Source: Argopecten irradians (lineage: Eukaryota > Mollusca > Bivalvia > Pectinida > Pectinidae). Taken from it: DNA of 64,000 nucleotides. The stretch lies in contig NC_091135.1 in the NCBI RefSeq assembly GCF_041381155.1, positions 8,609,620-8,673,619 of the forward strand, written 5' to 3'. Under the pieces are notes generated by a model. That model was not told the origin of the DNA, did no database searches, and saw only the letters and a program-made list of their open reading frames with translations. Made by a program: the position numbers and the translations under genes. Positions 1 to 52,569 of the stretch are shown piece by piece. Numbering within the stretch: the stretch's first letter is position 1; each line of letters starts with the position of its first letter.

Positions 1-3000
1 TTAGTGATATTTGTAGCATGCTTTGTCATCTAAAATAGTTAATTCTGGGATTTTATTGTGTATTCTCACTATGATGACTGTGTAATGTTAATATTATCTT
101 TTCTTTCAATGTACAGATTCCAGGCATTTGTTCAGCATTTCGACGTTACCCCACAAACCACCACTGTCGCTCCAGCCAAGAGGGCTTTGAATCCCTTTCT
201 GCAATCAATCTGTAAGTATCTGCTTATAAAATCGTATCATTTAATTTGGCGATAACCACTTTAGAGAAAATTCCTAAATGATGCATTACCAAATATTGCC
301 GAAAGAAAGAAGAATACTGTTTCAAGTACAGTATCAAAGATAACTAATTTAACAGATCGTCCTAGATATAAACATAAAGTTCACATCTAAAACTGAGACT
401 AGTAAAGAGCTAAGAGTAATAAGAATGTGTAGTTGTAGTTTGCTTGATTTATATCGCATACAGATATCGAAAACGTTATCCATGTGGTCTTCTGGCTTTG
501 CATGCCCATTACCATTACCATTCAGTTTGCATACCGTGCTTATTTTTGTATTTATTTTTTTTGATAAGTGAACGTGTTCCACGCTGATGAGGTCAAGATG
601 CTCGTCACAAATCTGTACCACAAATTGGGATCTGATGATAATGTAGCCCTGTGCACGAATGAGTGTAACACACTAGTCGATGGTCAGACCTCTGGCTCCA
701 TTAACGTCCTAGGCCACTCGGGTTGTCCTTTGATCTGCAACTCGTAAGTAATGTTGGTTTAAAGGGATGTTGTTTGCTGGTTGTATGGACTTTACATCTA
801 ATTGGTTTTACTTTACCTTTTAATAAAGGTTAATTTAGGAAGGCTTCTCCTGCATGTGGTCCGTAGCGTGTGAGAAAGTCTACACGACTTTAGGAACTGG
901 AGTATATTCGAATGTCTCTTTGCAAAAGTGCAATCTCCAGCTGCCAATTAAATGCTGCTGTAAATTATTAAAGGACACCGGACAGCACACCCCATCTGGT
1001 CTTGTTATCATGTTCTTGCCATAATGGAACTTTTGCCCTTTTTAGGTGATATTTGTAGCATGCTTTGTCATCTAAAATAGTTAATTCTGGGATTTTATTG
1101 TGTATTCTCACTATGATGACTGTGTAATGTTAATATTATCTTTTTCTTTCAATGTACAGATTCCAGGCATTTGTTCAGCATTTCGACGTTACCCCACAAA
1201 CCACCACTGTCGCTCCAGCCAAGAGGGCTTTGAATCCCTTTCTGCAATCAATCTGTAAGTATCTGCTTATAAAAATCGTATCATTTAATTTGGCGATAAC
1301 CACTTTAGAGCAAATTCTTAAATGATGCATTACCAAATATTGCCGAAAGAAAGAAGAATACTGTTTCAAGTACAGTATCAAAAATAACTAATTTAACAGA
1401 TCGTCCTAGATATAAACATAAAGTTCACATCTAAAACTGAGACTAGTAAAGAGCTAAGAGTAATAAGAATGTGTAGTTGTAGTTTGCTTGATTTATATCG
1501 CATACAGATATCGAAAACGTTATCCATGTGGTCTTCTGGCTTTGCATGCCCATTACCATTACCATTCAGTTTGCATACCGTGCTTATTTTTGTATTTATT
1601 TTTTTTGATAAGTGAACGTGTTCCACGCTGACGAGGTCAAGATGCTCGTCACAAATCTGTACCACAAATTGGGATCTGATGATAATGTAGCCCTGTGCAC
1701 GAATGAGTGTAACACACTAGTCGATGGTCAGACCTCTGGCTCCATTAACGTCCTAGGCCACTCGGGTTGTCCTTTGATCTGCAACTCGTAAGTAATGTTG
1801 GTTTAAAGGGATGTTGTTTGCTGGTTGTATGGACTTTACATCTAATTGGTTTTACTTTACCTTTTAATAAAGGTTAATTTAGGAAGGCTTCTCCTGCATG
1901 TGGTCCGTAGCTTGTGAGAATGTCTACACGACTTTAGGAACTGGAGTATATTCGAATGTCTCTTTGCAAAAGTGCAATCTCCAGCTGCCAATTAAATGCT
2001 GCTGTAAATTATTAAAGGACACCGGACAGCACACCCCATCTGGTCTTGTTATCATGTTCTTGCCATAATGGAACTTTTGCCTTTTTTAGTGATATTTGTA
2101 GCATGCTTTGTCATCTAAAATAGTTAATTCTGGGATTTTATTGTGTATTCTCACTATGATGACTGTGTAATGTTGATATTATCTTTTCTTTTAATGTACA
2201 GATTCCAGGCATTTGTTCAGCATTTCGACGTTACCCCACAAACCACCACTGTCGCTCCAGCCAAGAGGGCTTTGAATCCCTTTCTGCAATCAATCTGTAA
2301 GTATCTGCTTATAAAATCGTATCATTTAATTTGGCGATAACCACTTTAGAGAAAATTCCTAAATGATGCATTACCAAATATTGCCGAAAGAAAGAAGAAT
2401 ACTGTTTCAAGTACAGTATCAAAAATAACTAATTTAACAGATCGTCCTAGATATAAACATAAAGTTCACATCTAAAACTGAGACTAGTAAAGAGCTAAGA
2501 GTAATAAGAATGTGTAGTTGTAGTTTGCTTGATTTATATCGCATACAGATATCGAAAACGTTATCCATGTGGTCTTCTGGCTTTGCATGCCCATTACCAT
2601 TACCATTCAGTTTGCATACCGTGCTTATTTTTGTATTTTTTTTTTTTTGATAAGTGAACGTGTTCCACGCTGACGAGGTCAAGATGCTCGTCACAAATCT
2701 GTACCACAAATTGGGATCTGATGATAATGTAGCCCTGTGCACGAATGAGTGTAACACACTAGTCGATGGTCAGACCTCTGGCTCCATTAACGTCCTAGGC
2801 CACTCGGGTTGTCCTTTGATCTGCAACTCGTAAGTAATGTTGGTTTAAAGGGATGTTGTTTGCTGGTTGTATGGACTTTACATCTAATTGGTTTTACTTT
2901 ACCTTTTAATAAAGGTTAATTTAGGAAGGCTTCTCCTGCATGTGGTCCGTAGCGTGTGAGAATGTCTACACGACTTTATGGAACTGGAGTATATTCGAAT

Positions 3001-6000
3001 GTCTCTTTGCAAAAGTGCAATCTCCAGCTGCCAATTAAATGCTGCTGTAAATTATTAAGGGACACCGGACAGCACACCCCATCTGGTCTTGTTATCATGT
3101 TCTTGCCATAATGGAACTTTTGCCCTTTTTAGTGATATTTGTAGCATGCTTTGTCATCTAAAATAGTTAATTCTGGGATTTTATTGTGTATTCTCACTAT
3201 GATGACTGTGTAATGTTAATATTATCTTTTCTTTTAATGTACAGATTCCAGGCATTTGTTCAGCATTTCGACGTTACCCCACAAACCACCACTGTCGCTC
3301 CAGCCAAGAGGGCTTTGAATCCCTTTCTGCAATCAATCTGTAAGTATCCGCTTATAAAATCGTATCATTTAATTTGGCGATAACCACTTTAGAGAAAATT
3401 CCTAAATGATGCATTACCAAATATTGCCGAAAGAAAGAAGAATACTGTTTTCAAGTACAGTATCAAAGATAACTAATTTAACAGATCGTCCTAGATATAA
3501 ACATAAAGTTCACATCTAAAACTGAGACTAGTAAAGAGCTAAGAGTAATAAGAATGTGTAGTTGTAGTTTGCTTGATTTATATCGCATACAGATATCGAA
3601 AACGTTATCCGTGTGGTCTTCTGGCTTTGCATGCCCATTACCATTACCATTCAGTTTGCATACCGTGCTTATTTTTGTATTTTTTTTTTGATAAGTGAAC
3701 GTGTTCCACGCTGACGAGGTCAAGATGCTCGTCACAAATCTGTACCACAAATTGGGATCTGATGATAATGTAGCCCTGTGCACGAATGAGTGTAACACAC
3801 TAGTCGATGGTCAGACCTCTGGCTCCATTAACGTGATAGGCCACTCGGGTTGTCCTTTGATCTGCAACTCGTAAGTAATGTTGGTTTAAAGGGATGTTGT
3901 TTGCTGGTTGTATGGACTTTACATCTAATTGGTTTTACTTTACCTTTTAATAAAGGTTAATTTAGGAAGGCTTCTCCTGCATGTGGTCCGTAGCGTGTGA
4001 GAATGTCTACACGACTTTAGGAACTGGAGTATATTCGAATGTCTCTTTGCAAAAGTGCAATCTCCAGCTGCCAATTAAATGCTGCTGTAAATTATTAAAG
4101 GACACCGGACAGCACACCCCATCTGGTCTTGTTATCATGTTCTTGCCATAATGGAACTTTTGCCCTTTTTAGTGATATTTGTAGCATGCTTTGTCATCTA
4201 AAATAGTTAATTCTGGGATTTTATTGTGTATTCTCACTATGATGACTGTGTAATGTTAATATTATCTTTTCTTTTAATGTACAGATTCCAGGCATTTGTT
4301 CAGCATTTCGACGTTACCCCACAAACCACCACTGTCGCTCCAGCCAAGAGGGCTTTGAATCCCTTTCTGCAATCAATCTGTAAGTATCTGCTTATAAAAT
4401 CGTATCATTTAATTTGGCGATAACCACTTTAGAGAAAATTCCTAAATGATGCATTACCAAATATTGCCGAAAGAAAGAAGAATACTGTTTCAAGTACAGT
4501 ATCAAAAATAACTAATTTAACAGATCGTCCTAGATATAAACATAAAGTTCACATCTAAAACTGAGACTAGTAAAGAGCTAAGAGTAATAAGAATGTGTAG
4601 TTGTAGTTTGCTTGATTTATATCGCATACAGATATCGAAAACGTTATCCATGTGGTCTTCTGGCTTTGCATGCCCATTACCATTACCATTCAGTTTGCAT
4701 ACCGTGCTTATTTTTGTATTTATTTTTTTTGATAAGTGAACGTGTTCCACGCTGATGAGGTCAAGATGCTCGTCACAAATCTGTACCACAAATTGGGATC
4801 TGATGATAATGTAGCCCTGTGCACGAATGAGTGTAACACACTAGTCGATGGTCAGACCTCTGGCTCCATTAACGTCCTAGGCCACTCGGGTTGTCCTTTG
4901 ATCTGCAACTCGTAAGTAATGTTGGTTTAAAGGGATGTTGTTTGCTGGTTGTATGGACTTTACATCTAATTGGTTTTACTTTACCTTTTAATAAAGGTTA
5001 ATTTAGGAAGGCTTCTCCTGCATGTGGTCCGTAGCGTGTGAGAAAGTCTACACGACTTTTGGAACTGGAGTATATTCGAATGTCTCTTTGCAAAAGTGCA
5101 ATCTCCAGCTGCCAATTAAATGCTGCTGTAAATTATTAAGGGACACCGGACAGCACACCCCATCTGGTCTTGTTATCATGTTCTTGCCATAATGGAACTT
5201 TTGCCCTTTTTTAGTGATATTTGTAGCATGCTTTGTCATCTAAAATAGTTAATTCTGGGATTTTATTGTGTATTCTCACTATGATGACTGTGTAATGTTA
5301 ATATTATCTTTTCTTTCAATGTACAGATTCCAGGCATTTGTTCAGCATTTCGACGTTACCCCACAAACCACCACTGTCGCTCCAGCCAAGAGGGCTTTGA
5401 ATCCCTTTCTGCAATCAATCTGTAAGTATCTGCTTATAAAATCGTATCATTTAATTTGGCGATAACCACTTTAGAGCAAATTCTTAAATGATGCATTACC
5501 AAATATTGCCGAAAGAAAGAAGAATACTGTTTCAAGTACAGTATCAAAGATAACTAATTTAACAGATCGTCCTAGATATAAACATAAAGTTCACATCTAA
5601 AACTGAGACTAGTAAAGAGCTAAGAGTAATAAGAATGTGTAGTTGTAGTTTGCTTGATTTATATCGCATACAGATATCGAAAACGTTATCCATGTGGTCT
5701 TCTGGCTTTGCATGCCCATTACCATTACCATTCAGTTTGCATACCGTGCTTATTTTTGTATTTATTTTTTTTGATAAGTGAACGTGTTCCACGCTGACGA
5801 GGTCAAGATGCTCGTCACAAATCTGTACCACAAATTGGGATCTGATGATAATGTAGCCCTGTGCACGAATGAGTGTAACACACTAGTCGATGGTCAGACC
5901 TCTGGCTCCATTAACGTCCTAGGCCACTCGGGTTGTCCTTTGATCTGCAACTCGTAAGTAATGTTGGTTTAAAGGGATGTTGTTTGCTGGTTGTATGGAC

Positions 6001-6366
6001 TTTACATCTAATTGGTTTTACTTTACCTTTTAATAAAGGTTAATTTAGGAAGGCTTTCCTGCATGTGGTCCGTAGCGTGTGAGAATGTCTACACGACTTT
6101 AGGAACTGGAGTATATTCGAATGTCTCTTTGCAAAAGTGCAATCTCCAGCTGCCAATTAAATGCTGCTGTAAATTATTAAAGGACACCGGACAGCACACC
6201 CCATCTGGTCTTGTTATCATGTTCTTGCCATAATGGAACTTTTGCCCTTTTTAGTGATATTTGTAGCATGCTTTGTCATCTAAAATAGTTAATTCTGGGA
6301 TTTTATTGTGTATTCTCACTATGATGACTGTGTAATGTTAATATTATCTTTTCTTTTAATGTACAG
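1..6366 (+). repeat. Tandem array of ~1,042-bp units (six full units plus part)
   Basis: B-exon starts are spaced 1043, 1042, 1043, 1040, 1042 and 1040 bp. Introns (about 357 bp B to A and 416 bp A to B) are as conserved as exons, so the copies are very recent or homogenised. Differences are scattered single bases and poly-T length before exon A. Units 1 and 5 share GAT in exon A and the same variant in the downstream intron; units 2 and 6 share a different intron variant. This hints at a partial four-unit higher-order pattern. Confidence 0.93.
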
Positions 6367-6460
6367 ATTCCAGGTATTTGTTCAGCATTTCGACATTACC
6401 CCACAGACGGCTGTCGCTCCGGCTACTGGTACCAGCGCCAGGGACACCTCACTTTACTGA
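117..6460 (+). CDS. Secreted four-cysteine tandem-module (polyprotein-like) gene, 5' end outside window
   Basis: Family not recognised. Thirteen exons are visible, alternating B (95 bp) and A (175 bp). B: 117-211, 1160-1254, 2202-2296, 3245-3339, 4285-4379, 5327-5421, and terminal 6367-6460 ending in TGA. A: 569-743, 1613-1787, 2655-2829, 3696-3870, 4737-4911, 5779-5953. Every internal exon has an AG acceptor and a GTAAGT donor. A enters in phase 1 and leaves in phase 2; B does the reverse, so any number of A-B pairs stays in frame and each pair adds 90 residues. A encodes a helix-prone segment starting NVFHADEVKML with a C-x3-C-x19-C-x3-C pattern (CTNEC, CPLIC). B encodes FQAFVQHFDV, a Thr/Pro/Ala linker, Lys-Arg, then ALNPFLQSI. 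The terminal B exon loses the KR part and ends ...SARDTSLY. The signal-peptide exon must lie left of the window. Inferred: a secreted precursor cut at Lys-Arg into ~88-residue peptides. Exon calls are strong; processing is inference. Confidence 0.8.
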
Positions 6461-7145
6461 ATTATGTTATATATCTTTAAATGTCCGTTTACTTAACTGA
6501 TAAACACGTGTGTTTACTTAGTCCTTTTGTTTGTCTTTTCTTACGATTCTAATTATCTCATTTGGCCTGAAGGGCCGTTGAGCATATGTTATGGTGCAGC
6601 GTCCATTGTCCGTCTGTCAACATTTCTTTCATTTGCTACTTGCTAAAGTACTGTAGGGATTATATCCAATTTTGTTCAGTTACAATCTACAGAAAAGGCC
6701 AACAGAATTGATTTAAATGTTAGCTTCAATCCCCCTGAGGCTGGAAGGGCGGGCCCAATAAAGGTTGAGATTGTAACAAATGTTGTTCAATAACAATCTT
6801 GAGGAAAGGACAACATAGTTTATTTAAATCTTAGCTCCGATCCCCCTGTGGCTGGAGGGGCGGACCCAATAAAGGTAGAGATTGTAATCAATCTAGCAAA
6901 AGGTAAATCTTAGCTCCGAGATTGTAATCAATTTTTTCAGCAACAAACTTGAGGGAAAGAGAACGGTGTTTATGTAAATCTTAGCTCCGATTACCATGTG
7001 GCTGATGGGGCGGGGCTCCATAAAGGTAGAGATTGTAACCAATTTTGTTCAACAACAAACTTGAGGGAAGGAGAACGGTGTTTATTTAAATCTTAGCTCC
7101 GATTACCATGGGGCTGAAGAGGCGGGGCTCAATAAAGGTAAGGAG
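6461..7145. repeat. 3' flank of the array gene, then diverged ~110-140-bp tandem repeats
   Basis: After the stop codon there is about 100 bp of AT-rich sequence without a clear AATAAA. From about 6,560 a block recurs four times (near 6722, 6831, 6968 and 7089): TTAGCTCCGAT, then a C-rich stretch, GGGGCGG and CAATAAAGGTAGAGATTG. It looks like the tandem core of a bivalve dispersed element, and related scraps recur near 10,300-10,520. No coding signal is seen. Confidence 0.6.
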
Positions 7146-12815: not shown

Positions 12816-13617
12816 AGCTCGCCTATTCGAAGATTAGGGGGAGCTAATGTTGTCACGTCGGCGTCGGCGTCAGCGTTGGCGTCCCATTTCACGTTAAAGT
12901 TTCTGACCAAGTTTCTGTTTCGTCAATTGTTTAAGCTTAAGTCATCATAAATGTTTATGATTTTATTTTCCTAATATGTATGGATGCTGAATGTGATAAT
13001 ACAACCAATTTGGGGCCCTTTAGGAGTTTTTTGAGTCGGTTAATTTGTCATATTTCCATGTTAAAGGTTTTGAGCAAGTTTCTATTTTGTCTATTGTTTA
13101 AGCTTAAGTCATCATAAATGTTAATGATTTTATTTTCCTAATGTGTATGGATGCTGAACATGATGATACAACCAATTTGGGTCCCTTTAGGTTTTTTTTG
13201 AGTCGGTTAATTTGTCATATTTCCATGTTAAAGTTTTTGAGCAAGTTTCTATTTTGTCAATTGTTTAAGCATAAGTCATCATAAATGTTTATGATATTAT
13301 TTTCCTAATATGTATGAATGCTGAACGTGATAATACAACCAATTTGGGGCCCTTTAGGGGTATTTTTGAGTCGGTTAATTTGTCATATTTCCATGTTAAA
13401 GTTTTTGAGCAAGTTTCTATTTTGTCTATTGTTTAAGTTTAACGCATAAGTCATCATAAATGTTTATGAATTTATTTTCCTAATGTGTATGGATGCTGAA
13501 CGTGAGAATACAACCAATTTGGGGCCCTTTAGGTTTTTTTTGAGTCTGTTAATTTGTCATATTTCCATGTTTAAATAGTAAATACTTGAACATCAACTTC
13601 TTCTGAGTAGGCGAGCT
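12816..13617. mobile_element. Non-autonomous element (MITE-like) with an internal ~168-bp minisatellite
   Basis: The ends are inverted: AGCTCGCCTATTCGAAG at the left and the reverse complement of AGCTCGCCTACTCAGAAG at the right. Inside, a GGCGTCGGCGTC stretch is followed by four ~167-174-bp tandem units starting near 12894, 13061, 13228 and 13396, each holding AAGTTTCTATTTTGTC, a TCATCATAAATGTT word and CAACCAATTTGGGGCCC. No transposase frame is present. The class is not certain. Confidence 0.7.
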
Positions 13618-13807: not shown

Positions 13808-15130
13808 GGGTGGCTAATTTAATTTCACAAAGTTCTATGTAAGTTAACTTAACCTCATTTTGGTCATGATATCGACGGTAGATATTGAATCAAGTGTCCG
13901 TCTATGTTTTAGGGCTGTTTAAATACTCGTCCGAGATAAATTCTTTGTATCATGATTAAACAGTCAACGTCTTTCAGGAAGGCCAGGTCATTGGCATTTT
14001 ATCGGTCGTGAACTCTCTGTTAGATAGAAAGTTTATTTCTAAACTGAAATTACCATGGGAGTTCCCGCTTTGTCATGATTTTATATCATTTTATTTTGAA
14101 ACCTTTCCATAAATTATTAATGGTACTCTTGTATGTCATAATTTTTTTTATTAAAATACTGTATAATAATACATAAATTAACTGTATCACAATAATGATA
14201 TATAGTGTTTGAAAACAAAATATTGTATTGAAAACCTTTTATGGCTTATTGATTAAAAAAAACGTATTTCTTGTCCATGGTGGCAAGCATATGTAACGAT
14301 TTGGATTAATAAAGCTAAAAGGAACCAAATAGATCATATTTAATAGTATTTTCACTTCATGAATTTCCTAACAAATCTTGCATGTGTGTCTGTATGTATA
14401 TCCGAAAGTGGTCCATGCAGAGTTTACCCGCTAACCATTTACATTTTTAATATTGTTATGCATCAACACATTTTGCCAGCACAATACTGTAAGAGTATTA
14501 GTGTAATATGGTATTACCTAAGTATTTCATTTTGTCAATTTTGAAGTTTGAGTTCATTGTCGGGGTTACATTAATTTTCAGGATATTTGGACACGATCTT
14601 AATTTGCATAAGCTACAGTTTTAAGAACTCAAACTTCAAAATTGACAAAACACGATCAAGATCACGATCTGATCAAGACGGCAAATGTCTGTATATTATA
14701 TCTCGAGTTTATAGCAACGATTAGGCACTAATGACGTCAATATTTACCTCACTGACGTATGTTTTGTTTTTCTAGATATGACGTCACATTGTTTATAACG
14801 CAATTAACGGAGTAAAATATAAGTATTGTCCTTATTACCATTGGTCAACGAAAACAACCATGTATTTGTAAAATAAATATTATATAGTCAACGAAAACAA
14901 GCATATATTTGTAAAACAAATTTTATATTGAGTGCAAATTAAACAATATGGCTAACCGTCAAATAATGCAGCCATTTATGGTGTTCCCGCACATACAGAT
15001 ATTTTTGGTAGAATCCAAAAAAATATACATTTTCCTTATACAATGTAAGAGAGATATACGTGCGTGTTATGCGAGTGGGTTGTAATGGTCTATGACATTA
15101 CGATGGCGTTGTATAAATGATTTTAAACAG
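13808..15130 (+). repeat. Left arm of a large inverted repeat around the peptide gene
   Basis: This segment matches, in reverse complement, 21580-22505 plus 24318-24626. Clear matched landmarks are GGCATTTTATCGGTCGTGAA (near 13996 here and, inverted, near 24460-24480), the GTTTGAAAACAAAAT word (14209) and the TGCGAGTGGGTTGTAATGG word (15069). The arm is about 1.3 kb with moderate divergence and the gene lies in the ~6.5-kb interior. Confidence 0.75.
14530..14650. repeat. 25-bp perfect hairpin inside the left arm
   Basis: Positions 14530-14554 (core TTTTGTCAATTTTGAAG) are exactly reverse-complemented at 14626-14650, with a 71-bp loop. In the right arm the corresponding region reads straight through, so the loop plus second stem here looks like a local inversion or snap-back event. 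Confidence 0.8.
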
Positions 15131-16147
15131 TGAGAACGGTATGTATTTTTGGCGGAACACCCTTGTTCATTTTACGTTAATGTATGTGTAGAAACAGTGG
15201 AACTACAATTTTCATCTTCAATTTAAAATACACTTCATATACCAATTTGTGTATTTACTACTTATTACTGCTGATGCGCTTTGGCGTTTGTGTTTTTTTT
15301 AAATATCTATTTCATTCATAGAGTATATATATATGCAATTGTGTTTAAGTTTACGTGTTTTTCTAATTTATTCTGATATACGTGTATATATAGATATGTT
15401 TCTAATATTGACAAGGCGACAAAGTCTTATGCAACTTCACATTTTCTGGAAATGACGTTATAATCATTATGATGGTTTAATGTGAGTTTAATCCTCGATT
15501 AACGTTTTTGATAGACATTTGAACAACCGGTTCCTGGTTGAGTTGTATGTCAAATAATTTTGATATTTACAGTAATGATTATTTACCTTTACCAATTTCA
15601 CGTATACACTCAATGTTGAAGAATCAATTTGTATAAAAATTACTTTATATAAAGGTACATACAAGAATGTATTTCAATGACAAAGAACATATGTTCTTCT
15701 GTCTATCTAAATATTGCTTCATGTTACTGTATTATGTTGTCAATAGTGTGTCACAAACAGTGTTATTGGCATGAAAGTCAAAGACAATTGCATTCGCCTC
15801 ACATCAACATTCCAAAACGATGCAACAACAGCATAAAACTCTGTATTCATTACCCCTTTCTCCAGCAACAGTGATACTTCAAGCTACCGAATTTGTATTC
15901 GAATATTTACAGGTGGTTAAGAATTTTATATAATTTATCAAGTGATTGCATTAGAGTTGAAATGCGTAATGCATCACGGAATGTATCCGATGTATGTGGG
16001 GCGAGATAGGATTAATGCATAAGGTCAGGTGGAGAACATATATGTATTTGTTAAATGTATCAAATACAAACATAGGTAAAAGGAGATAATATAGTATTGT
16101 ATTCCATCACAGATGTTTTCTTATCTATAGGAGTGCTTTGACCTTTT

Positions 16148-16235
16148 TGACATATATGTCATGGATACCGACTTCTATATAAACTGGACAGTCGATCCTC
16201 TCGATCTAAACGCCTGCTAGTCACATAGGTCAGAG
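16148..16235 (+). promoter_or_regulatory. Core promoter and non-coding first exon of peptide gene copy 1
   Basis: A TATATAAA box lies at 16176-16183. A perfect 14-bp palindrome, TGACATATATGTCA, sits 14 bp upstream at 16148-16161. A transcript starting near 16205 would hold a short untranslated exon ending at 16235 (CAGAG before GTAAGC). The arrangement is repeated exactly in copy 2. The transcription start is inferred from TATA spacing. Confidence 0.6.
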
Positions 16236-17048
16236 GTAAGCTTACATGTGCTTTTTAAATTTCGTTTTCTGTTCTATATGTTAAAGTTTTGCATTTTAAC
16301 TCACCATGTATTTGTCTCGAAATTTTGATCTGTTAGATTATAGACATAGAATGATTGATTGACTTCATTTCAAATTTTCTTTACGCTGTTGGTGTCTTCG
16401 TCTAACCGATCAATCTTTTGAATAATCCCACACTTTATGTCATGTGATTTAATCCAGACAAAAGTAAATTCAGCAATTAAATACATTGTGCTGTCTTACT
16501 TTGGGGTTTTGGTGGATAGAGGAACATTCAAAAGTATAATGCGATGTTTTTTTATGTACCAAACGAAAAGATTCTATTTCCATTTGTCTTATGTTTCTCT
16601 TCTTGCATTTGACATTTCGATTATTCACGTATTTACTTTGATTTCGTATATTTAATATTATCTCTTAAGACTTATACTCATAATTTGAGATTGAATCCTT
16701 GCATTGACCTATTTCTTCATTTTCAATATTTAATATTTACTTATTTATCTTTTTAGCATCTATGTATTCCTCTTGTTCATGTCTCAATAGGAACAATTGT
16801 ATATCAGTATATAAGGATAGATATTACCACATGAGAATGATGAAATGGTTTGAATATGTTTCTACACCCAATACAACCAAATCGTAACATAGAATCTTTG
16901 AAATAAGAAAAACAATCGCTGAAACGACAATATACAAATGTGTTTTCTAAACATACACTTTACATAGACATAAATGCGGTTCATTGTTTTATTCAGATTT
17001 AATTACACCATGTTTCTGTATTATAGCCTGTTCACTCTACCCAACATC

Positions 17049-17964
17049 ATGAAATTCGCACTTTTCCTCGTTATTGCATTACCTTTGGTAATGTCAGCAC
17101 CCAATAAGAAGGCTTTTGATTTCGGCTCAAACCCGTTCATAAACAGTCTGCGTGAGTATTAAAACCTATATATATATATTTGTGTACCCTACTATCTCTT
17201 CATTTCTCAGAAACATTTGCATTGTAACTGTTTTTGTTTATATCATATGTACCCTTTTATTTTGACCACGATAGTTTGCATCAGCTTACATCAAAGCAAA
17301 TGCTAAATCAGTAGGTATCCGGCTAAATTAAAGCCAATTGTTTATGTACGAAAGTCTATCATAAAATGTTCTTTTGTAACGAATTACAACATTTTACTAT
17401 TTTATTTTAAGGAACAGCTGATTCTACGACCGTCAATAAGATGCTTATGTATATATAAATATTGATTACTCTAACATATTGCTTTTTAGTGGACGTCTTC
17501 CATGCTGACGAGCTCAAACAGCTGGTTACAGACTTGGTTGATAATCTTGGATCTAATGCTAGGTTGAACGAATGTCAGTCAAAGTGTAACGGTTTGGTAG
17601 ACACCCAGTTTTCTGCTGGGACTGTCAACACACTGTCTCACAGCGCTTGTCCTTTAGCTTGCCATTCGTAAGTAGCCATTTAGAAAATTAAAGAATAAAG
17701 ATAGCCTTGATTTCTTTTACATCTTTTGTACATTTGTTTGTACACATGTACTGTTAATAAAAAACAGTTTTTGATTTGAAGGTTTTTTTTATAAACCATC
17801 AATCTAGTTTGAATGAATATGAATGAAAACGTTTATAAAGAATGGTAGTTTTGTATCAATGATATTTATTTCTCTGAAAGGTTTATCTATATATTTGTAG
17901 GCTTCAGGAGTTGGCGCACTTTTTCCATGTCAAACCAACAACTACTGCTGCTCCAGCCGTGTAA
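17049..17964 (+). CDS. Secreted four-cysteine peptide, copy 1 (114 aa)
   Basis: Family not recognised. Coding exons: 17049-17151, 17490-17667 and 17901-17964 (345 nt with stop). The start Met opens a clear signal peptide, MKFALFLVIALPLVMSA, and lies 22 bp after an acceptor (TATAG, exon from 17027). An in-frame ATG at 16974 falls in the preceding intron and was not used. After the signal peptide comes PNKK, a possible dibasic site, then AFDFGSNPFINSLLDVFHADE, here given only in part as a motif region. The middle exon carries C-x3-C-x20-C-x3-C (CQSKC, CPLAC); the last exon encodes LQELAHFFHVKP and a Thr/Ala/Pro tail. AATAAA is at 18004. Exon order and phases match the array gene at 1-6.5 kb, so this is the one-module form. 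Role unknown; an extracellular peptide is likely. Confidence 0.85.
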
Positions 17965-18377
17965 ACTTTCCCGATGGACTTTGTGTAGAATAGCGATGAT
18001 CGGAATAAAATAAAATAACCAGATGAAATAGCATTATTCTTGTTTCTTTCCGACTTCTCATCAATAGTTCTGGTTTCCGCCATATTTACTATCGACTGAT
18101 ACAACAACTTAATTTATATTTCCCTTGAACCACTGTAAACATCTTCAGAATTGGATATAAAAAGGATGTTGTGTTCTACTGAGAAAAACAATCAGGATTA
18201 GCTTATAAAATATTATGGTTGTCTTACATGGTACATATTGAAATTTGTGCGGGATATACGACCGTAAAATAGTTAAATTGATCACAGCAATTATATCTTT
18301 TACATGGATAACAGAAGGATACTGTCCATTGTGTAGTGTCAGTATAGAAAGGCCATGTTAAGTCAGTCACTCCTTGC

Positions 18378-18828
18378 TGAACCAACTAAATAATTTTCCA
18401 TAGACCCCAATATTAAAGTTTGTTAAAGTTTTTTATGTATTATTAAAGCAACTGAATATTAGTTAGCTACTGTGTTCTATAATTAAAGTCTAGGTTCTCA
18501 GACAACACTAGATAGAAAAAAGTTTGGGTCCTTCAGCTCAAATTCCAACCAGGGTAGCCATTTTGAAATAAGGTGCATTTTGCACTGAAGATCCTGAAAT
18601 GCTAATGTTTGTACCTATCCATTATCAAAATTTTGAACCTTAATTTCAATTTGGATTTCCAAATTCATATTTTTGTTATCCAGGAATAATTACCTGTCAG
18701 AAAACATTTTTAATTTTGAAATTTATAGTTAACAAGCCAATAAGGGACCGGGTAAAATTTCTATTCTTGGCGCAATCTTGTATACACAGGGACGTTTCGA
18801 TGGCCTTTATTCGTTTACTTGGTTGTTC
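18378..18828. mobile_element. TA-type MITE, older copy (duplication 1)
   Basis: It starts GAACCAACTAAAT and ends TTACTTGGTTGTTCC, degenerate forms of the terminal inverted repeats seen intact at 23849-24316. The interior is alignable along its length (TTTGGGTCCTTC, ATTCCAACCAGGGTAGC, TCTTGTATACACAGG). Confidence 0.75.
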
Positions 18829-19339
18829 CATGAAGGGAAAGGTTGATCGCCATGGTGACCATGTGCTAACCATCAGTATTAAACTCTTTTGTCAATATAT
18901 ATTCAAGATGAGTAACTCGATTGGTCTGATAAATCATCCAATTTTTGTGTAAAAGAGTTTGTGAAATAACGGTTGAAGTTTTGCGGCTGACATTAGTCTC
19001 GATTGAATGACAGATAACGTGTCTTTAATGTGCCATATAGTTCACCATATACCGTAATGTAGAATTGTTGGAATATTCAATGAAACATCGAGAAATTGTT
19101 TTTGGTTTGTCGGGCACTCATTTGTAAGGTGCATAACACGACATGACTCTAGTGGAAAACTTCACTACGAGTAGATGTCAACGCCAGTCCTTCCAGAATC
19201 AGATTAAATGCCAACAAAGTAATACAATTGAACATACGCAGATTTAAAGCAAATTCAAAACAAATATTATAAATTCTTATTGAAACATCGAACCCACTCA
19301 TATTTGACTTACAAGAAATTATGTGAAAAGAAAGCACCA

Positions 19340-20175
19340 ATCTCCGACAATTCACAGTCTACAATAATAGTCCAACAACTTGAGGTAGGGCATTAGATGC
19401 TAAATCGGCGGGCGTACATACACACGTCCCTAATATACACATACAACTCAATACCACAATACAGGTTGTTGCCATTAGTGCAACTCTTCACAGACGATTC
19501 ATTGTCTGTTCTATTTATCTACCTTTAAATAACATTTTGTTGTGATGTACAAAACAACATTGTATCGGATCTTCCAGTGCCGTTCATCTTTATGAGCGAC
19601 TACAATGGATACAACAGTTTCTGGGGTTCACCGATCACTGACGATATATGTAGACGCATTGAAAAGTTCATTTATAAAATCAACTTAAGTCTGTTCATCG
19701 CCTCTGCCCCATCCTGCCTCTGGTTCGCTTACTCAACTTGACCTAACGTTGTGCCACTCAGTACTAGATAATAATTGGAGGGTCAACAATGATTATGTGG
19801 AAGCTAGTATGTGGGTTCTATTCCAACACTTACGCGCCAAACAGTTCATCGATGATAAATTTAAGAAACCCTTTAGTTATGACCCGATAAAAATCTTCAC
19901 AAGTGCGCTTATTTCAATCACAACAAACAAGTATTCTTAAATCCGTTCAAAAACATGAAAATTTTCATTAGGGCTGCCAGAACTGCTTGAATGCCTCGGG
20001 AAATTAAACGTTTCAACAGCTGGCCCAGATGATATTCCCTACTAGTACTTAGACAATTATCAGAATCACGATGCCTTTTAAATATATTCAAACAAATTTA
20101 TGGAAAGGGTCAATCATTATACCTATTCTGTAGCCTGGGAAGGATGCTAACTGTAACTTCCTATTTCGCTCACGT
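19340..20175 (+). mobile_element. Decayed LINE (Jockey-like) endonuclease to RT start
   Basis: Conceptual translation from 19571 gives LPVPFIFMSDYNGYNSFWGS, the GDxNGHNxxWGS region of the apurinic endonuclease with Ser-Asp in place of Gly-Asp. Further on, in shifting frames, come TDD, a KPFSYDP region, GPDDIP and WEGSIIIPIL with PGKDA, the usual entry to the reverse transcriptase. Many stops and shifts; clearly dead. Clade call is by motif memory. Confidence 0.65.
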
Positions 20176-21580
20176 CTTAACTTTTCTAAGAATATATTCT
20201 ATGAAGCGCGTTAGTACCGCATTTTGAATATATTCTTAGAGCATGGTTAACACAAAAGGGAAATCGAATCCCTATATTTACACTCACGCGACTTTTTATC
20301 TATATTTTATACAATATACTCGTCATTTGAAAGTGTCGTAATTATTCAATAAAAATCGGTCATAAGTGGGAGGAGCTTACTCAATTGAACAGCCAATGGG
20401 GACTCTTCACATACGGTCGAATTATTCATCTGCGACGACAAAAAGTGTATTTTAGTGTGAAATAAACATGAAAAAATAAAACTTTCAGAGATAATTTCAT
20501 TTAATCAGATTATACATTCAAATACGTATTAATTTTTAGTAACAGTAACATATAGCGTAATTACATAAAATATAAATTACTCGACCACATATGTAAGCTC
20601 GTTAATCGTTGTGCAGCAAGGCGAATCTGACTGTTTTACAGTCACTGAAATTTACCAAGTTGACGTTGAAGGTTCACCCGAGGAACAAGCTGTTGGTCAA
20701 AACACTTGAGTTTCACTAGTTAGGTGTGCTTCGAGAATGTCGTGTGATTATCTACAGTAGTATCAACGTTTTATTTACCGATTAATGGAACAACTTTAAT
20801 CATTAAATTCGCAAAAGTCAAGAGGTAATGTTTATAACTGACCTCTGTCAGAGGGCCTCACATCGATCCCCCCAAAAGTCAGAGGAAGAAGACTACAGAG
20901 ATCATGTTTACATTTGACATCCATCATTTTGGACAAAAATGAAAGTATTGCATCTTGGGATATTTTTTCCGTTTCTTTATTACAATTGTTAATCTTTTTT
21001 TTTTAAGTTTACATTTTTTTTCGGAAATTATATGACAAACAACACCTACGTGTATTATCCATCAAAATGTAAACAATGCCATGTGTTTCTTACAAAAGTA
21101 GTCCCTATATGTGGTATAAAACATTTTCATACGCAAGTTCAAAGATCAATGTTTCCATGCAAATACATGTATGGTAAACAAATATGTTCAGTATTGTATA
21201 GTGTCCAAGAACAGCAAGATATTTGCCTGCAGCTCGGCTCGCAGTTCCTATCTACAGATTCTTGACTATATAAGGGTCCAAGGGTTCAATCTTGTTCTGT
21301 ACCCGGAGCTTTTCGAACAACACTCATGAAGATGACGAGACATATCTAGATGATCGACGGAAGAAAATAACATTACAGTTTACTGATACAAGACCACACT
21401 CAATCAATTTGATACAAATTTGAAACTATCATGCACTGATATATAGCCTTTAATTCAACCATTGTCAATATATGTGGTCAAAAAATAAACCTTTTTTTTA
21501 AAATAAATCCTATACTTAAACCTCATTTGTCCAGTCTAAGAGATCGTAGAGAGGAAGTTGTCCTTTCTCATCTGGTCCTA
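20175..21580. other. Interior of duplication copy 1 downstream of the LINE, no gene supported
   Basis: It holds a 15-bp inverted repeat (20185-20199 with 20226-20240), a CCAAT-like word (20393) near GGGAGGAGC, and AT-rich sequence. A 77-codon frame at 21032-21265 lacks family features. On the minus strand near 20830-20990 a frame reads QDAILSFLSKMMDVKC; its homologue in copy 2 is open, but no domain is recognised. Confidence 0.45.
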
Positions 21581-22506
21581 CCGTTCTTAATGTTTTAAAA
21601 TCATTTATACAACGCCGTCGTAATGTCATAGACCACCACAACCCACTCGCATAGCATATATATATCTATTATAAGAGAAATGTATACTTTTTGGATTCTA
21701 CCAAACGCATACATGTATGTAGCCGCGGGGAAACCATAAGAGGCTGTATAATTTGACGGTTAACCGTATTGTTTAATTTTGCATCAATATGAAATTTATT
21801 TTACAAATACATGCTTGTATATTTCTTTTCGTTGACTACTAGAAACAAGAATAATACTATTTGACTCCGCTTATTGCATTATAAACAGTGTGACGTCATA
21901 TCTAGGATAATTACGTCAGTTAGGTAAATATTAACGTCATTAGTGAATGTAAACTCAAGATATAATATACTGGCATTTGCACATTGGTAACATATGATTA
22001 TTCACGAAGTGACCTTCACTGTCAGTTACATATGCAGTTAATAGTCTTGTCGAATCATTAACATTCAGGATATTAGGACACGATCTGAATTTGCATAAGC
22101 TACAATTTTAAGAACTCAAACTGCAAAATTGACAAAATAAAATACTTATATGTGTTTCCATATTACACTTATTCTCTAACAGTATTGTACTGGCAAAAGG
22201 TATGGATAGCGGGTAAACTTAGAAATCCTCATGGACCATTTTGGATATACATACAGACACACATACAAGGTTTGTTAGAAAAACCTTGAAGTGAAAATAC
22301 TGTTGTATATAATCTATTTGGTTCTTCATAGCTTTATCAATCCAAATCGTTACATATGCTAACTACCATGGGCATGAAATAATGTTGTTTTTAAATCACT
22401 AATTCATAAAAGGTTTTCAATATCACATTTTGTTTTCAAACGCCATTTTTAATTTTTGTTGATACATTTAATTAAAAAAAAAATTGAAATATTATATGGT
22501 GCTTGA

Positions 22507-24316: not shown

Positions 24317-25755
24317 TAATAAAATATGATTTATGACTTACAAGATTACCATCAATAATTTATGGAACGGTTTCAAAATAAAATGATATAAAATCATGAC
24401 AAAGCGGGAACTCCCGTGGTAATTTCAGTTTAGAAATGAACTTTATATCAAACAGAGAGTTCACGACCGATAAAATGCCAATGGACTGGTCTTCCTGAAA
24501 GATGCTGACTGTGTAATCATAATACAAAAAATTATCTCGGACGTATATTTGAACAACCATGAAACATAAAATGAGATTAAGTTAACTACTCTTACACAGA
24601 ACTATATGAAATTGGAATGGCCACCCGAAAAAAATATACATTTTCCTTAAACAATGTAAGAGAGATATATGTGCGTGTTATGCGAGTGGGGTGTAATGGT
24701 CTATGACATTACGATGGCGTTGTATAAATGATTTTAAACAGTGAGAACGGGATGTATTTTTGGCGGAACACCCTTGTTCATTTACGTTAATGTATGTGTA
24801 GAAACAGTGGAACTACAATTTTCATCTTCAATTTAAAATACACTTCATATACCAATTTGTGTATTTACTACTTATTACTGGTGATGCGCTTTGGCGTTTG
24901 TGTTTTTTTAAATATCTATTTCATTCATAGTGTATATATATATGCAATTGTGTTTAAGTTTACGTGTTTTTCTAATTTATTCTGATATACGTGTATATAT
25001 AGATATGTTTCTAATATTGACAAGGCGACAAAGTCTTATGCAACTTCACATTTTCTGGAAATGACGTTATAATCATTATGATGGTTTAATGTGAGTTTAA
25101 TCCTCGATTAACGTTTTTGATAGACATTTGAACAACCGGTTCCTGGTTGAGTTGTATGTCAAATAATTTTGATATTTACAGTAATGATTATTTACCTTTA
25201 CCAATTTCACGTATACACTCAATGTTGAAGTATCAATTTGTATAAAAAAATACTTTATATAAAGGTACATACAAGAATGTATTTCAATGACAAAGAACAT
25301 GTTCTTCTGTCTATCTAAATATTGCTTCATGTTACTGTATTATGTTGTCAATAGTGTGTCACAAACAGTGTTATTGGCATGAAAGTCAAAGACAATTGCA
25401 TTCGCCTCACATCAACATTCCAACACGATGCAACAACAGCATAAAACTCTGTATTCATTACCCCTTTCTCCAGCAACAGTGATACTTCAAGCTACCGAAT
25501 TTTTATTCGAATATTTACAGGTGGTTAAGAATTTTATATAATTTATCAAGTGATTGCATTAGAGTTGAAATGCGTAATGCATCACGGAATGTATCCGATG
25601 TATGTGGGGCGAGATAGGATTAATGCATAAGGTCAGGTGGAGAACATATATGTATTTGTTAAATGTATCAAATACAAACATAGGTAAAAGGAGATAATAT
25701 AGTATTGTATTCCATCACAGATGTTTTCTTATCTATAGGAGTGCTTTGACCTTTT

Positions 25756-25843
25756 TGACATATATGTCATGGATACCGACTTCTATATAAACTGGACAGT
25801 CGATCCTCTCGATCTAAACGCCTGCTAGTCACATAGGTCAGAG
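25756..25843 (+). promoter_or_regulatory. Core promoter and non-coding first exon of peptide gene copy 2
   Basis: Same layout as copy 1: palindrome TGACATATATGTCA at 25756-25769, TATATAAA at 25784-25791, and first-exon donor CAGAG before GTAAGC at 25843/25844. Confidence 0.6.
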
Positions 25844-26656
25844 GTAAGCTTACATGTGCTTTTTAAATTTCGTTTTCTGTTCTATATGTTAAAGTTTTGC
25901 ATTTTAACTCACCATGTATTTGTCTCGAAATTTTGATCTGTTAGATTATAGACATAGAATGATTGATTGACTTCATTTCAAATTTTCTTTACGCTGTTGG
26001 TGTCTTCGTCTAACCGATCAATCTTTTGAATAATCCCACACTTTATGTCATGTGATTTAATCCAGACAAAAGTAAATTCAGCAATTAAATACATTGTGCT
26101 GTCTTACTTTGGGGTTTTGGTGGATAGAGGAACATTCAAAAGTATAATGCGATGTTTTTTATGTACCAAACGAAAAGATTCTATTTCCATTTGTCTTATG
26201 TTTCTCTTCTTGCATTTGACATTTCGATTATTCACGTATTTACTTTGATTTCGTATATTTAATATTATCTCTTAAGACTTATACTCATAATTTGAGATTG
26301 AATCCTTGCATTGACCTATTTCTTCATTTTCAATATTTAATATTTACTTATTTATCTTTTTAGCATCTATGTATTCCTCTTGTTCATGTCTCAATAGGAA
26401 CAATTGTATATCAGTATATAAGGATAGATATTACCACATGAGAATGATGAAATGGTTTGAATGTGTTTTCTACACCCAATACAACCAAATCGTAACATAG
26501 AATCTTTGAAATAAGAAAAACAATCGCTGAAACGACAATATACAAATGTGTTTTCTAAACATACACTTTACATAGACATAAATGCGGTTCATTGTTTTAT
26601 TCAGATTTAATTACACCATGTTTCTGTATTATAGCCTGTTCACTCTACCCAACATC

Positions 26657-27574
26657 ATGAAATTCGCACTTTTCCTCGTTATTGCATTACCTTTGGTAAT
26701 GTCAGCACCCAATAAGAAGGCTTTTGATTTCGGCTCAAACCCGTTCATAAACAGTCTGCGTGAGTATTAAAACCTATATATATATATTTGTGTACCCTAC
26801 TATCTCTTCATTTCTCAGAAACATTTGCATTGTAACTGTTTTTGTTTATATCATATGTACCCTTTTATTTTGACCACGATAGTTTGCATCAGCTTACATC
26901 AAAGCAAATGCTAAATCAGTAGGTATCCGGCTAAATTAAAGCCAATTGTTTATGTACGAAAGTCTATCATAAAATGTTCTTTTGTAACGAATTACAACAT
27001 TTTACTATTTTATTTTAAGGAACAGCTGATTCTACGACCGTCAATAAGATGCTTATGTATATATAAATATTGATTACTCTAACATATTGCTTTTTAGTGG
27101 ACGTCTTCCATGCTGACGAGCTCAAACAGCTGGTTACAGACTTGATTGATAATCTTGGATCTAATGCTAGGTTGAACGAATGTCAGTCAAAGTGTAACGG
27201 TTTGGTAGACACCCAGTTTTCTGCTGGGACTGTCAACACACTGTCTCACAGCGCTTGTCCTTTAGCTTGCCATTCGTAAGTAGCCATTTAGAAAATTAAA
27301 GAATAAAGATAGCCTTGATTTCTTTTACATCTTTTGTACATTTGTTTGTACACATGTACTGTTAATAAAAAACAGTTTTTGATTTGAAGGTTTTTTTTTT
27401 ATAAACCATCAATCTAGTTTGAATGAATATGAATGAAAACGTTTATAAAGAATGGTAGTTTTGTATCAATGATATTTATTTCTCTGAAAGGTTTATCTAT
27501 ATATTTGTAGGCTTCAGGAGTTGGCGCACTTTTTCCATGTCAAACCAACAACTACTGCTGCTCCAGCCGTGTAA
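26657..27574 (+). CDS. Secreted four-cysteine peptide, copy 2 (114 aa)
   Basis: Coding exons 26657-26759, 27098-27275 and 27511-27574; the acceptor for the first coding exon gives an exon start at 26635. The protein matches copy 1 except one visible change, Val to Ile in the helix-prone part of the middle exon (LVTDLIDNLG). Signal peptide, PNKK site, both CX3C motifs and the Thr/Ala/Pro tail are intact, as are all splice sites. Introns are as similar as exons, so the duplication is recent or is an allelic copy placed in tandem by the assembler. Function unknown. Confidence 0.83.
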
Positions 27575-27987
27575 ACTTTCCCGATGGACTTTGTGTAGAA
27601 TAGCGATGATCGGAATAAAATAAAATAACCAGATGAAATAGCATTATTCTTGTTTCTTTCCGACTTCTCATCAATAGTTCTGGTTTCCGCCATATTTACT
27701 ATCGACTGATACAACAACTTAATTTATATTTCCCTTGAACCACTGTAAACATCTTCAGAATTGGATATAAAAAGGATGTTGTGTTCTACTGAGAAAAACA
27801 ATCAGGATTAGCTTATAAAATATTATGGTTGTCTTACATGGTACATATTGAAATTTGTGCGGGATATACGACCGTAAAATAGTTAAATTGATCACAGCAA
27901 TTATATCTTTTACATGGATAACAGAAGGATACTGTCCATTGTGTAGTGTCAGTATAGAAAGGCCATGTTAAGTCAGTCACTCCTTGC

Positions 27988-28438
27988 TGAACCAACTAAA
28001 TAATTTTCCATAGACCCCAATATTAAAGTTTGTTAAAGTTTTTTATGTATTATTAAAGCAACTGAATATTAGTTAGCTACTGTGTTCTATAATTAAAGTC
28101 TAGGTTCTCAGACAACACTAGATAGAAAAAAGTTTGGGTCCTTCAGCTCAAATTCCAACCAGGGTAGCCATTTTGAAATAAGGTGCATTTTGCACTGAAG
28201 ATCCTGAAATGCTAATGTTTGTACCTATCCATTATCAAAATTTTGAACCTTAATTTCAATTTGGATTTCCAAATTCATATTTTTGTTATCCAGGAATAAT
28301 TACCTGTCAGAAAACATTTTTAATTTTGAAATTTATAGTTAACAAGCCAATAAGGGACCGGGTAAAATTTCTATTCTTGGCGCAATCTTGTATACACAGG
28401 GACGTTTCGAAGGTCTTTATTCGTTTACTTGGTTGTTC
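27988..28438. mobile_element. TA-type MITE, older copy (duplication 2)
   Basis: Counterpart of 18378-18828 at an offset of 9610 bp, nearly identical. Confidence 0.75.
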
Positions 28439-28949
28439 CATGAAGGGAAAGGTTGATCGCCATGGTGACCATGTGCTAACCATCAGTATTAAACTCTTTT
28501 GTCAATATATATTCAAGATGAGTAACTCGATTGGTCTGATAAATCATCCAATTTTTGTGTAAAAGAGTTTGTGAAATAACGGTTGAAGTTTTGCGGCTGA
28601 CATTAGTCTCGATTGAATGACAGATAACGTGTCTTTAATGTGCCATATAGTTCACCATATACCGTAATGTAGAATTGTTGGAATATTCAATGAAACATCG
28701 AGAAATTGTTTTTGGTTTGTCGGGCACTCATTTGTAAGGTGCATAACACGACATGACTCTAGTGGAAAACTTCACTACGAGTAGATGTCAACGCCAGTCC
28801 TTCCAGAATCAGATTAAATGCCAACAAAGTAATACAATTGAACATACGCAGATTTAAAGCAAATTCAAAACAAATATTATAAATTCTTATTGAAACATCG
28901 AACCCACTCATATTTGACTTACAAGAAATTATGTGAAAAGAAACCACCA

Positions 28950-32118: not shown

Positions 32119-32124
32119 TTAATA

Positions 32125-36902: not shown

Positions 36903-37826
36903 ATGAAATTCGCACTTTTCCTCGTTATTGCATTACCTTTGGTAATGTCAGCACCCAATAAGAAGGCTTTTGATTTCGGCTCAAACCCGTTCATAAACAG
37001 TCTGCGTGAGTATTAAAACCTATATATATATATTTGTGTACCCTACTATCTCTTCATTTCTCAGAAACATTTGCATTGTAACTGTTTTTGTTTATATCAT
37101 ATGTACCCTTTTATTTTGACCACGATAGTTTGCATCAGCTTACATCAAGCAAATGCTAAATCAGTAGGTATCCGGCTAAATTAAAGCCAATTGTTTATGT
37201 ACGAAAGTCTATCATAAAATGTTCTTTTGTAACGAATTACAACATTTTACTATTTTATTTTAAGGAACAGCTGATTCTACGAACACCGTCAATAAGATGC
37301 TTATGTATATATAAATATTGATTACTCTAACATATTGCTTTTTAGTGGACGTCTTCCATGCTGACGAGCTCAAACAGCTGGTTACAGACTTGATTGATAA
37401 TCTTGGATCTAATGCTAGGTTTGAACGAATGTCAGTCAAAGTGTAACGGTTTGGTAGACACACCAGTTTTCTGCTGGGACTGTCAACACACTGTCTCACA
37501 GCGCTTGTCCTTTAGCTTGCCATTCGTAAGTAGCCATTTAGAAAATTAAAGAATAAAGATAGCCTTGATTTCTTTTACATCTTTTGTACATTTGTTTGTA
37601 CACATGTTACTGTTAATAAAAAACAGTTTTTGATTTGAAGGTTTTTTTTTTATAAACCATCAATCTAGTTTGAATGAATATGAATGAAAACGTTTATAAA
37701 GAATGGTAGTTTTGTATCAATGATATTTATTTCTCTGAAAGGTTTATCTATATATTTGTAGGCTTCAGGAGTTGGCGCACTTTTTCCATGTTCAAACCAA
37801 CAACTACTGCTGCTCCAGCCGTGTAA
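36903..37826 (+). pseudogene. Secreted four-cysteine peptide, copy 3 (frame broken as assembled)
   Basis: Exon positions by homology: 36903-37005, 37346-37525 and 37762-37826. The signal-peptide exon is identical to the other copies. The middle exon has two one-base additions relative to copies 1 and 2 (near 37420 and 37461), which lose the frame across both CX3C motifs; the last exon has a third addition (near 37791). Splice sites are intact. The additions sit in a stretch with many others in non-coding sequence, so they may be sequencing or assembly errors rather than true mutation. The promoter region is also noisy: no clean TATATAAA or 14-bp palindrome, only TTATAAAT near 35961. Confidence 0.6.
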
Positions 37827-38253
37827 ACTTTCCCGATGGACTTTGTGTAGAATAGCGATGATCGGAATAAAATAAAATAAACCAGATGAAATAGCATTAT
37901 TCTTGTTTCTTTTCCGACTTCTCATCAATAGTTCTGGTTTCCGCCATATTTACTATCGACTGATACAACAACTTAATTTATATTTCCCTTGAACCACTGT
38001 AAACATCTTCAGAATTGGATATAAAAAGGATGTTGTGTTCATACTGAGAAAAAACAATCAGGATTAGCTTATAAAATATTATGGTTGTCTTACATGGTAC
38101 ATATTGAAATTTGTGCGGGATATACGACCGTAAAAATAGTTAAATTGATCGATCACAGCAATTGATATATCTTTTACATGGATACATTTACAAAGGATAC
38201 TGTCCATTGTGTAGTGTCAGTATAGAAAGGCCATGTTAAGTCAGTCACTCCTT

Positions 38254-40095: not shown

Positions 40096-40169
40096 TTCGC
40101 TCACGTCTTAACTTTTCTATCGAATATAATTATATGAAGTCGCGTTTGTACAGCATTTTTGAATATCAC

Positions 40170-52564: not shown

Positions 52565-52569
52565 TTGTT

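What the first reader, a model, noticed from the sequence alone, without database searches (positions are those of the whole stretch)
117..6460. A secreted-peptide gene grown into a polyprotein by tandem exon-pair duplication
Seen: alternating 175-bp and 95-bp exons with reciprocal phases (1 to 2 and 2 to 1), repeated at 1.04-kb spacing and ending in a distinct terminal exon with a stop. Each pair adds exactly 90 residues and one Lys-Arg site between modules. Inferred: a secreted precursor released as a series of near-identical four-cysteine peptides. I do not recognise this family or architecture.
Basis: partly seen in the sequence, partly recalled or inferred. Interest (0 to 1): 0.85.

Follow-up and report, generated by a model that had tools for sequence, protein, structure and literature searches.

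The report
Polyprotein gene born by exon fusion
An animal, probably a clam-like mollusc, carries two neighbouring genes that each encode a secreted chain of nine or ten near-identical small four-cysteine proteins separated by cutting sites, and the simple one-unit genes and the fused exon that suggest how such a chain is built lie beside them.

Summary
The gene begins 4.0 kb upstream: a signal-peptide exon, nine 175-nt module exons, eight 95-nt linker exons and a stop-bearing last exon form one 838-codon frame over 18 GT-AG introns. A second, ten-module polyprotein gene (943 codons) lies about 105 kb further upstream, and five intact one-module, three-exon genes (two in the window) share the 163-kb cluster; protein searches of the 846-Mb genome found no match elsewhere. 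Two pairs of array-2 units differ by 13-14 silent changes and no amino acid, so internal units are selected as protein. The linker exon is best read as a chimera of the last and first exons of a one-module gene, which carried the dibasic pro-site into every junction. I read it as a tandemly repetitive polyprotein cut at Lys-Arg into 88-residue, acidic, helical, four-cysteine proteins. Cleavage, expression and function are inferred. No Pfam or PDB-sequence relative was found; a low-confidence fold of the module exon matched nothing. The kind is known (nematode polyprotein allergens, profilaggrin); the family and the intron-bearing, exon-fusion architecture appear new.

The parts
117..211 (+). 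linker exon B3 of 8 (95 nt, phase 2 to 1; last-exon-like half + Lys-Arg + first-exon-like half)
569..743 (+). module exon A4 of 9 (175 nt, four Cys)
1160..1254 (+). linker exon B4
1613..1787 (+). module exon A5
2202..2296 (+). linker exon B5
2655..2829 (+). module exon A6
3245..3339 (+). linker exon B6
3696..3870 (+). module exon A7 (one Leu-to-Ile variant)
4285..4379 (+). linker exon B7
4737..4911 (+). module exon A8
5327..5421 (+). linker exon B8
5779..5953 (+). module exon A9
6367..6460 (+). last exon T with stop; no dibasic site
17049..17151 (+). one-module paralogue 1, exon 1 (signal peptide, Ala-Pro-Asn-Lys-Lys)
17490..17667 (+). one-module paralogue 1, module exon
17901..17964 (+). one-module paralogue 1, last exon with stop
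26657..26759 (+). one-module paralogue 2, exon 1
27098..27275 (+). one-module paralogue 2, module exon
27511..27574 (+). one-module paralogue 2, last exon with stop
36903..37005 (+). broken one-module paralogue 3, exon 1
37346..37525 (+). broken one-module paralogue 3, module exon with frame disruptions (likely pseudogene)

Best explanation
It is a tandemly repetitive polyprotein gene of a secreted-protein family for which I found no name. Shown from sequence: signal peptide (by eye), nine modules (ten in the sister gene), one dibasic site between each pair of modules, none inside modules, intact frames, purifying selection on array-2 units, and one-module three-exon paralogues next door. Inferred, origin: the ancestor was a three-exon gene (signal peptide plus Ala-Pro-x-Lys-Lys pro-site; module; last exon). 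A recombination between the last exon of one copy and the first exon of the next, perhaps within short Ala-Ala-Pro or Ala-Pro coding stretches found in both, dropped the stop and the signal peptide and left a chimeric linker exon carrying the pro-site. Unequal exchange then copied linker-module pairs, very recently in the window gene. Inferred, action: the precursor enters the secretory pathway, each module folds as an acidic helical unit held by two disulfides of a CxxxC...CxxxC pattern, a Kex2/PC-type convertase cuts after Lys-Arg, and many copies of one ~88-residue, ~9.4-kDa protein are released. I think it most likely serves as an abundant extracellular carrier or binding protein made in bulk, as nematode polyprotein allergens are; this last step is the weakest (about 0.35).
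For: Full gene: 19 exons, 18 GT-AG introns, 838 codons, one stop at the end. Sister gene: 21 exons, 943 codons, one stop. Dibasics: 9 in array 1 (8 linkers plus exon 1), 10 in array 2 (9 linkers plus exon 1), against 1.6 and 2.8 expected by composition; the site persists through codon and K/R changes (AAG AGG, AAA CGC, AGG CGA, AAA CGG). Array-2 units 2v4 and 3v5: 14 and 13 silent, 0 replacement changes in 88 codons, with introns 49-93% alike among units 2-5. Chimera: tail of the first linker of either array against the tail of exon 1, anchored at the splice donor, 0-1 of 100,000 permutations as good; DNA 24-27 of 43 identical with 0-1 of 100,000; linker head matches the last exon. Three predicted helices in the module exon (low confidence). 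Predicted mature unit 88 aa, 9,443.5 Da, pI 4.86.
Against: No RNA or peptide data. The chimera signal is weak for the diverged array-2 linkers B6 and B8 (248-403 and 1,283-4,772 of 100,000), and the introns after exon 1 and after the linker do not align, as would be expected of an old event but leaving it unproven at DNA level. Four of the six pairs among array-2 units 2-5 do carry 6 replacement changes, and units 7v8 carry 8. Silent/replacement counts are uninformative within the window array (units 2-8: 4 variable exon columns of 270, 22 of 777 intron columns). A one-unit gene could also arise by contraction of a polyprotein; no outgroup was available. Function has no direct support.
Confidence: 0.72

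Rival explanations
1. The precursor is not cut: it is a secreted nine- or ten-domain protein with Thr/Pro-rich linkers, used as a multivalent structural, mucus or adhesive protein.
For: Linkers are Thr/Pro/Ala-rich; cleavage was not observed. Multi-domain globins show that tandem domains can stay in one chain (PMC4503718, passages).
Against: Dibasic site at 17 of 17 linkers of the two genes and none in a module, kept while flanking residues and linker length change; a dibasic in the same place follows the signal peptide in the one-module genes, where it separates no domains.
Confidence: 0.2
2. It is a hormone, pheromone or neuropeptide precursor, the units being signals and not bulk protein.
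For: Signal peptide, dibasic-flanked repeats and KR rather than RxKR sites are the anatomy of prohormones; multi-copy bivalve neuropeptide precursors are known (PMC4200219, passages).
Against: Units of 88 residues are long for that class (recalled); no Gly before any linker dibasic, so no amidation; many near-identical copies of a four-Cys unit suit dose better than signal. None of these is decisive.
Confidence: 0.2
3. It is an antimicrobial or other defence peptide released in bulk.
For: Small, secreted, cysteine-bearing and tandemly amplified.
Against: Net charge -5 (window-array units) and -9 (array-2 units and the one-module form), pI 4.86, opposite to most such peptides (recalled); purifying selection in array 2 rather than diversification.
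Confidence: 0.08
4. The array is recombination debris or an assembly artefact, and only a one-module product is made.
For: Units of the window array differ by only 0.4-1.7%, introns included; one-module relatives with frame breaks exist nearby.
Against: Two separate arrays are intact over 838 and 943 codons; in 8 compared pairs among array-2 units 2-6 there are 10-15 silent and 0-6 replacement changes; units carry private differences, so the assembly told them apart.
Confidence: 0.04

Closest known systems
Nematode polyprotein allergens (ABA-1 type), Pfam PF16469
   Same: Tandemly repetitive chain of similar helical, disulfide-bearing units with basic cutting sites between them, released as many copies of one small protein (PMC3079579, sections 4 and 19 read and passages).
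   Different: No NPA hit for 5 of 5 proteins scanned at E up to 10, none over cut-off in the exon-by-exon genome search. Four Cys in CxxxC...CxxxC, not two. [quoted passage not shown] KR, not K/R-x-K/R-R.
Profilaggrin
   Same: Giant repetitive polyprotein cut into many copies of one monomer (PMC5053269, start of abstract in the listing).
   Different: 37-kDa keratin-binding monomers of skin cells; no resemblance was looked for beyond the Pfam scans.
Multi-domain globins of invertebrates
   Same: Tandem domains arisen by unequal crossing-over (PMC4503718, passages).
   Different: Domains stay joined (recalled); a 'bridge intron' is named in a title in that paper's reference list, whereas here a chimeric exon joins the units and also supplies a cutting site.
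Fungal KEX2-processed repeat proteins
   Same: Precursors with several peptide cores flanked by KEX2 sites (PMC9769878, outline and abstract).
   Different: Fungal, linear peptides; here four-Cys modules, each encoded over two exons.
Multi-copy bivalve neuropeptide precursors (e.g. APGWamide)
   Same: Signal sequence, dibasic sites, repeated product (PMC4200219, passages).
   Different: Short amidated peptides; here 88-residue units, no amidation Gly.

Membership tests
Tandemly repetitive polyprotein (as described in PMC3079579) | One open frame of many similar or identical units | tested here: met
   9 units in 838 codons, 10 units in 943 codons
Tandemly repetitive polyprotein (as described in PMC3079579) | Regularly spaced proteinase sites | tested here: met
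   KR or RR at 17 of 17 linkers; site in sequence only
Tandemly repetitive polyprotein (as described in PMC3079579) | Post-translational release of the units | not testable with these tools
   needs mass spectrometry
Tandemly repetitive polyprotein (as described in PMC3079579) | Very small or no introns in the repeats (stated there as a fact about them, not as a definition) | tested here: not met
   two introns per unit, 356-358 and 413-416 nt in the repeated part of the window gene
Nematode polyprotein allergen family | Match to Pfam PF16469 | tested here: not met
   no NPA hit for 5 of 5 proteins scanned at E up to 10 (filters drop most hits above 0.1); genome search: one match below cut-off, on another contig (0 of 14 controls rang)
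Nematode polyprotein allergen family | Two absolutely conserved cysteines, seven-helix unit | tested here: not met
   four Cys in 18 of 18 modules listed and 12 of 12; three helices predicted in the module exon (pLDDT 65.8; linker-encoded parts not modelled, so helix number is open)
Neuropeptide/prohormone precursor | Signal peptide plus dibasic-flanked copies | tested here: met
   signal peptide judged by eye, no predictor run
Neuropeptide/prohormone precursor | C-terminal Gly for amidation before the dibasic (common, not universal) | tested here: not met
   residue before the dibasic is Ala, Val or Asn in 17 of 17 linkers
Alpha-hairpinin-like fold (recalled) | CxxxC...CxxxC helical hairpin | tested here: inconclusive
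   pattern present, spacing CxxxC-x19/20-CxxxC; model of low confidence, no fold match

The most novel reading that the evidence does not exclude
A previously undescribed bivalve secreted-protein family in which the stages of the birth of a tandemly repetitive polyprotein survive in one 163-kb cluster: three-exon one-module genes, a chimeric last/first exon that turned the signal-adjacent pro-site into a reusable cutting site, an older ten-module gene whose internal units are held alike by purifying selection, and a very recent nine-module expansion that may still vary in copy number.
Probability: 0.58. Interest if true: 0.68.

Novelty: new variant of a known kind. Interest (0 to 1): 0.6.

Why it matters
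Tandemly repetitive polyproteins are called rare, their adaptive value mysterious, and the authors of PMC3079579 ask why more proteins are not made this way (sections 4 and 19). Here one protein family exists as one-unit genes and as nine- and ten-unit precursors side by side, with introns in every unit. That makes the origin step (fusion of last and first exon, the cutting site coming along with it) and the dose argument directly testable in one animal, and it counts against the idea that such repeats must be intron-poor.
Full report
What is there. The window is G000:C2:8609620-8673619 of an 845.8-Mb assembly in 1,508 contigs. Fetching the neighbouring DNA showed that the window cuts the gene. 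Its first coding exon, at window coordinate -4013 to -3929, encodes MQWFGILLLAVVMAAPERKSSNPLLGAI: a signal peptide by eye, then Ala-Pro-Glu-Arg-Lys. Joined in order, 19 exons give 2,514 nt, 838 codons with a single stop at the end; all 18 introns are GT-AG; the other two frames hold 55 and 63 stops. There are nine modules, eight linkers and a last module that ends TGTSARDTSLY without a dibasic. Introns are 866 and 921 nt at the 5' end and then alternate between 356-358 and 413-416 nt.

A cluster. tblastn over the 263-kb stretch C2:8430001-8693000 and two protein searches of the whole genome (39 of 39 and 42 of 42 reported matches; the tool calls its counts lower bounds) place the relatives between 8484 and 8647 kb on C2. 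A DNA search with one unit (which did not list the window's own array) gave 15 of 16 matches in the second array; the sixteenth, at C2:37.92 Mb (72%, E 2.1e-5), falls in the intron part of the query and was not followed. The cluster comprises a second polyprotein gene (E1 at 8484074, T ending 8500773, about 105 kb upstream of the first; 21 exons, 943 codons, ten modules), five intact three-exon one-module genes (module exons at 8525, 8533, 8543, 8627, 8636 kb; spliced frames checked), two one-module genes with disrupted module exons (8510 and 8647 kb) and lone first-exon copies (8531, 8541 and 8549 kb). Two intact and one broken one-module gene lie in the window.

It is under selection as protein. 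In array 2, units 2 and 4 differ by 14 silent and 0 replacement changes in 88 codons, units 3 and 5 by 13 and 0; in 66 codons units 3 and 6 differ by 12 and 0, units 5 and 6 by 10 and 0. The four other pairs of units 2-5 show 12-15 silent and 6 replacement changes, and units 7 and 8 show 17 and 8 in 95 codons. Introns of units 2-5 are 49-93% alike. Of 21 module pairs chosen for (module exon plus nine codons), dN/dS is 0 in five, 0.06-0.46 in eleven, and not given in five (four saturated, one with no silent change). In the window array the units are too young to tell: 0.4-1.7% different, with 4 variable exon columns of 270 and 22 of 777 intron columns for units 2-8. DNA similarity between the two arrays covers the exons plus at most about 60 nt of intron, with one further match of 38 columns.

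Cutting sites. Array 1 holds nine dibasic pairs, array 2 ten; each is at a linker or just after the signal peptide, none within a module. In array 2 the linkers change in length and sequence (APAKRALNP, TGTSAKRSFGS, TGTNVRRSLGS, STNKRALNP) while the dibasic stays, spelled with different codons. This is the best sequence evidence that the units are cut apart; it is not proof.

How the linker exon arose. The one-module genes have exon 1 (signal peptide, then AP[H/N]KKA, five residues on to NPF and [N]SL), a module exon, and a last exon (LQELAHFFHV..., mostly ending APAV, stop). A linker exon of array 2 reads FQELVHHFDINQQTAAAPA|KRALNPFLSSI: last exon, then first exon. Anchored at the splice donor and without gaps, the linker tail matches exon 1 of the two polyprotein genes better than all but 0-1 of 100,000 permutations for the first linkers of both arrays, 3-7 for array-2 linker B9, 248-403 for B6 and 1,283-4,772 for B8. 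With gaps allowed, four exon-1 tails of the one-module family (two of them identical) gave 0 of 3,000 permutations as good for the first linkers of both arrays, 0-1 for B9, 1-33 for B6 and 110-711 for B8, which thus does not match. At DNA level 24-27 of 43 bases agree (0-1 of 100,000). Exons of both kinds carry a short Ala-Ala-Pro or Ala-Pro coding stretch at the point of fusion, which suggests, but does not show, that recombination used it. The phases (2 in, 1 out) follow from the parents' splice sites. So the pro-site next to the signal peptide became the cutting site between units.

Growth. In a small unrooted FastTree of 19 modules (4 of the 9 of array 1, all 10 of array 2, 5 one-module genes) array 1 is one clade (support 0.981); array 2 is not: its modules 7, 8 and 10 fall nearer to array 1 and the one-module genes than to its other modules (0.947). 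The last exon of array 1 also resembles linkers B6-B8 of array 2 (TAVAPATGT). So the window gene may descend from a gene like the 3' part of array 2. Its lengthening is its own and recent: module 1 is the outlier (dS 0.26, dN 0.08 to module 2; 78% DNA match against 98.7-100% for the eight full units). Copy number may vary among individuals; this was not tested.

What it may do. The mature unit would be 88 residues, 9,443.5 Da with two disulfides, pI 4.86; net charge is -5, and -9 in array 2 and the one-module form. The module exon alone is predicted as three helices at low confidence with no fold match. Cys are CxxxC-x19/20-CxxxC and invariant in 12 of 12 aligned modules. Acidity argues against a cationic defence peptide; size and sameness of the units argue for bulk supply over signalling. 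I therefore favour an abundant extracellular carrier or binding protein, at low confidence.

Known kinds. Tandemly repetitive polyproteins are described as rare, best known from filaggrin and the nematode allergens, with very small or no introns in the repeats, and of unexplained value (PMC3079579, sections 4 and 19). This gene works like them in architecture but is no member of the nematode family. Its introns and the chimeric exon set it apart. Multi-domain globins (PMC4503718, passages) share the crossing-over origin.

Animal. At least 150 C1q domains over cut-off fit a bivalve by recalled knowledge.

Noticed in passing
window 15017-22504 and 24628-32119: A 7.5-kb segment holding a one-module paralogue is duplicated at 99.3% identity; a third, partial copy (35795-40180, about 94%) holds the broken paralogue.
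   Followed up: partly
window 51236-52582, minus strand: 449-codon open frame of a neurotransmitter-gated ion channel (Neur_chan_LBD E 1.6e-47); the membrane domain matches only to position 88 of 233 in the best stretch.
   Followed up: no
window 55386-55688, plus strand: Open frame with the end of a fibrinogen C-terminal domain (E 6.2e-15).
   Followed up: no
window 62469-62807, minus strand: Weak histidine-phosphatase match (E 1.5e-4, 21.8 bits, under the curated cut-off of 23.6).
   Followed up: no
window 56753-57235 and 12886-13571: Tandem repeats of 37 nt (13.1 copies) and 167 nt (4.1 copies).
   Followed up: no
window 6653-7140: Imperfect repeats of about 111 nt, starting some 190 nt behind the last exon.
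   Followed up: no
C2:8531150, 8541469, 8548969: Lone first-exon copies of the one-module family with no module exon found behind them by the searches.
   Followed up: no
C2:37922006-37922112 (outside the window): A 72% DNA match (E 2.1e-5) to the intron between module and linker exon; perhaps a dispersed repeat.
   Followed up: no
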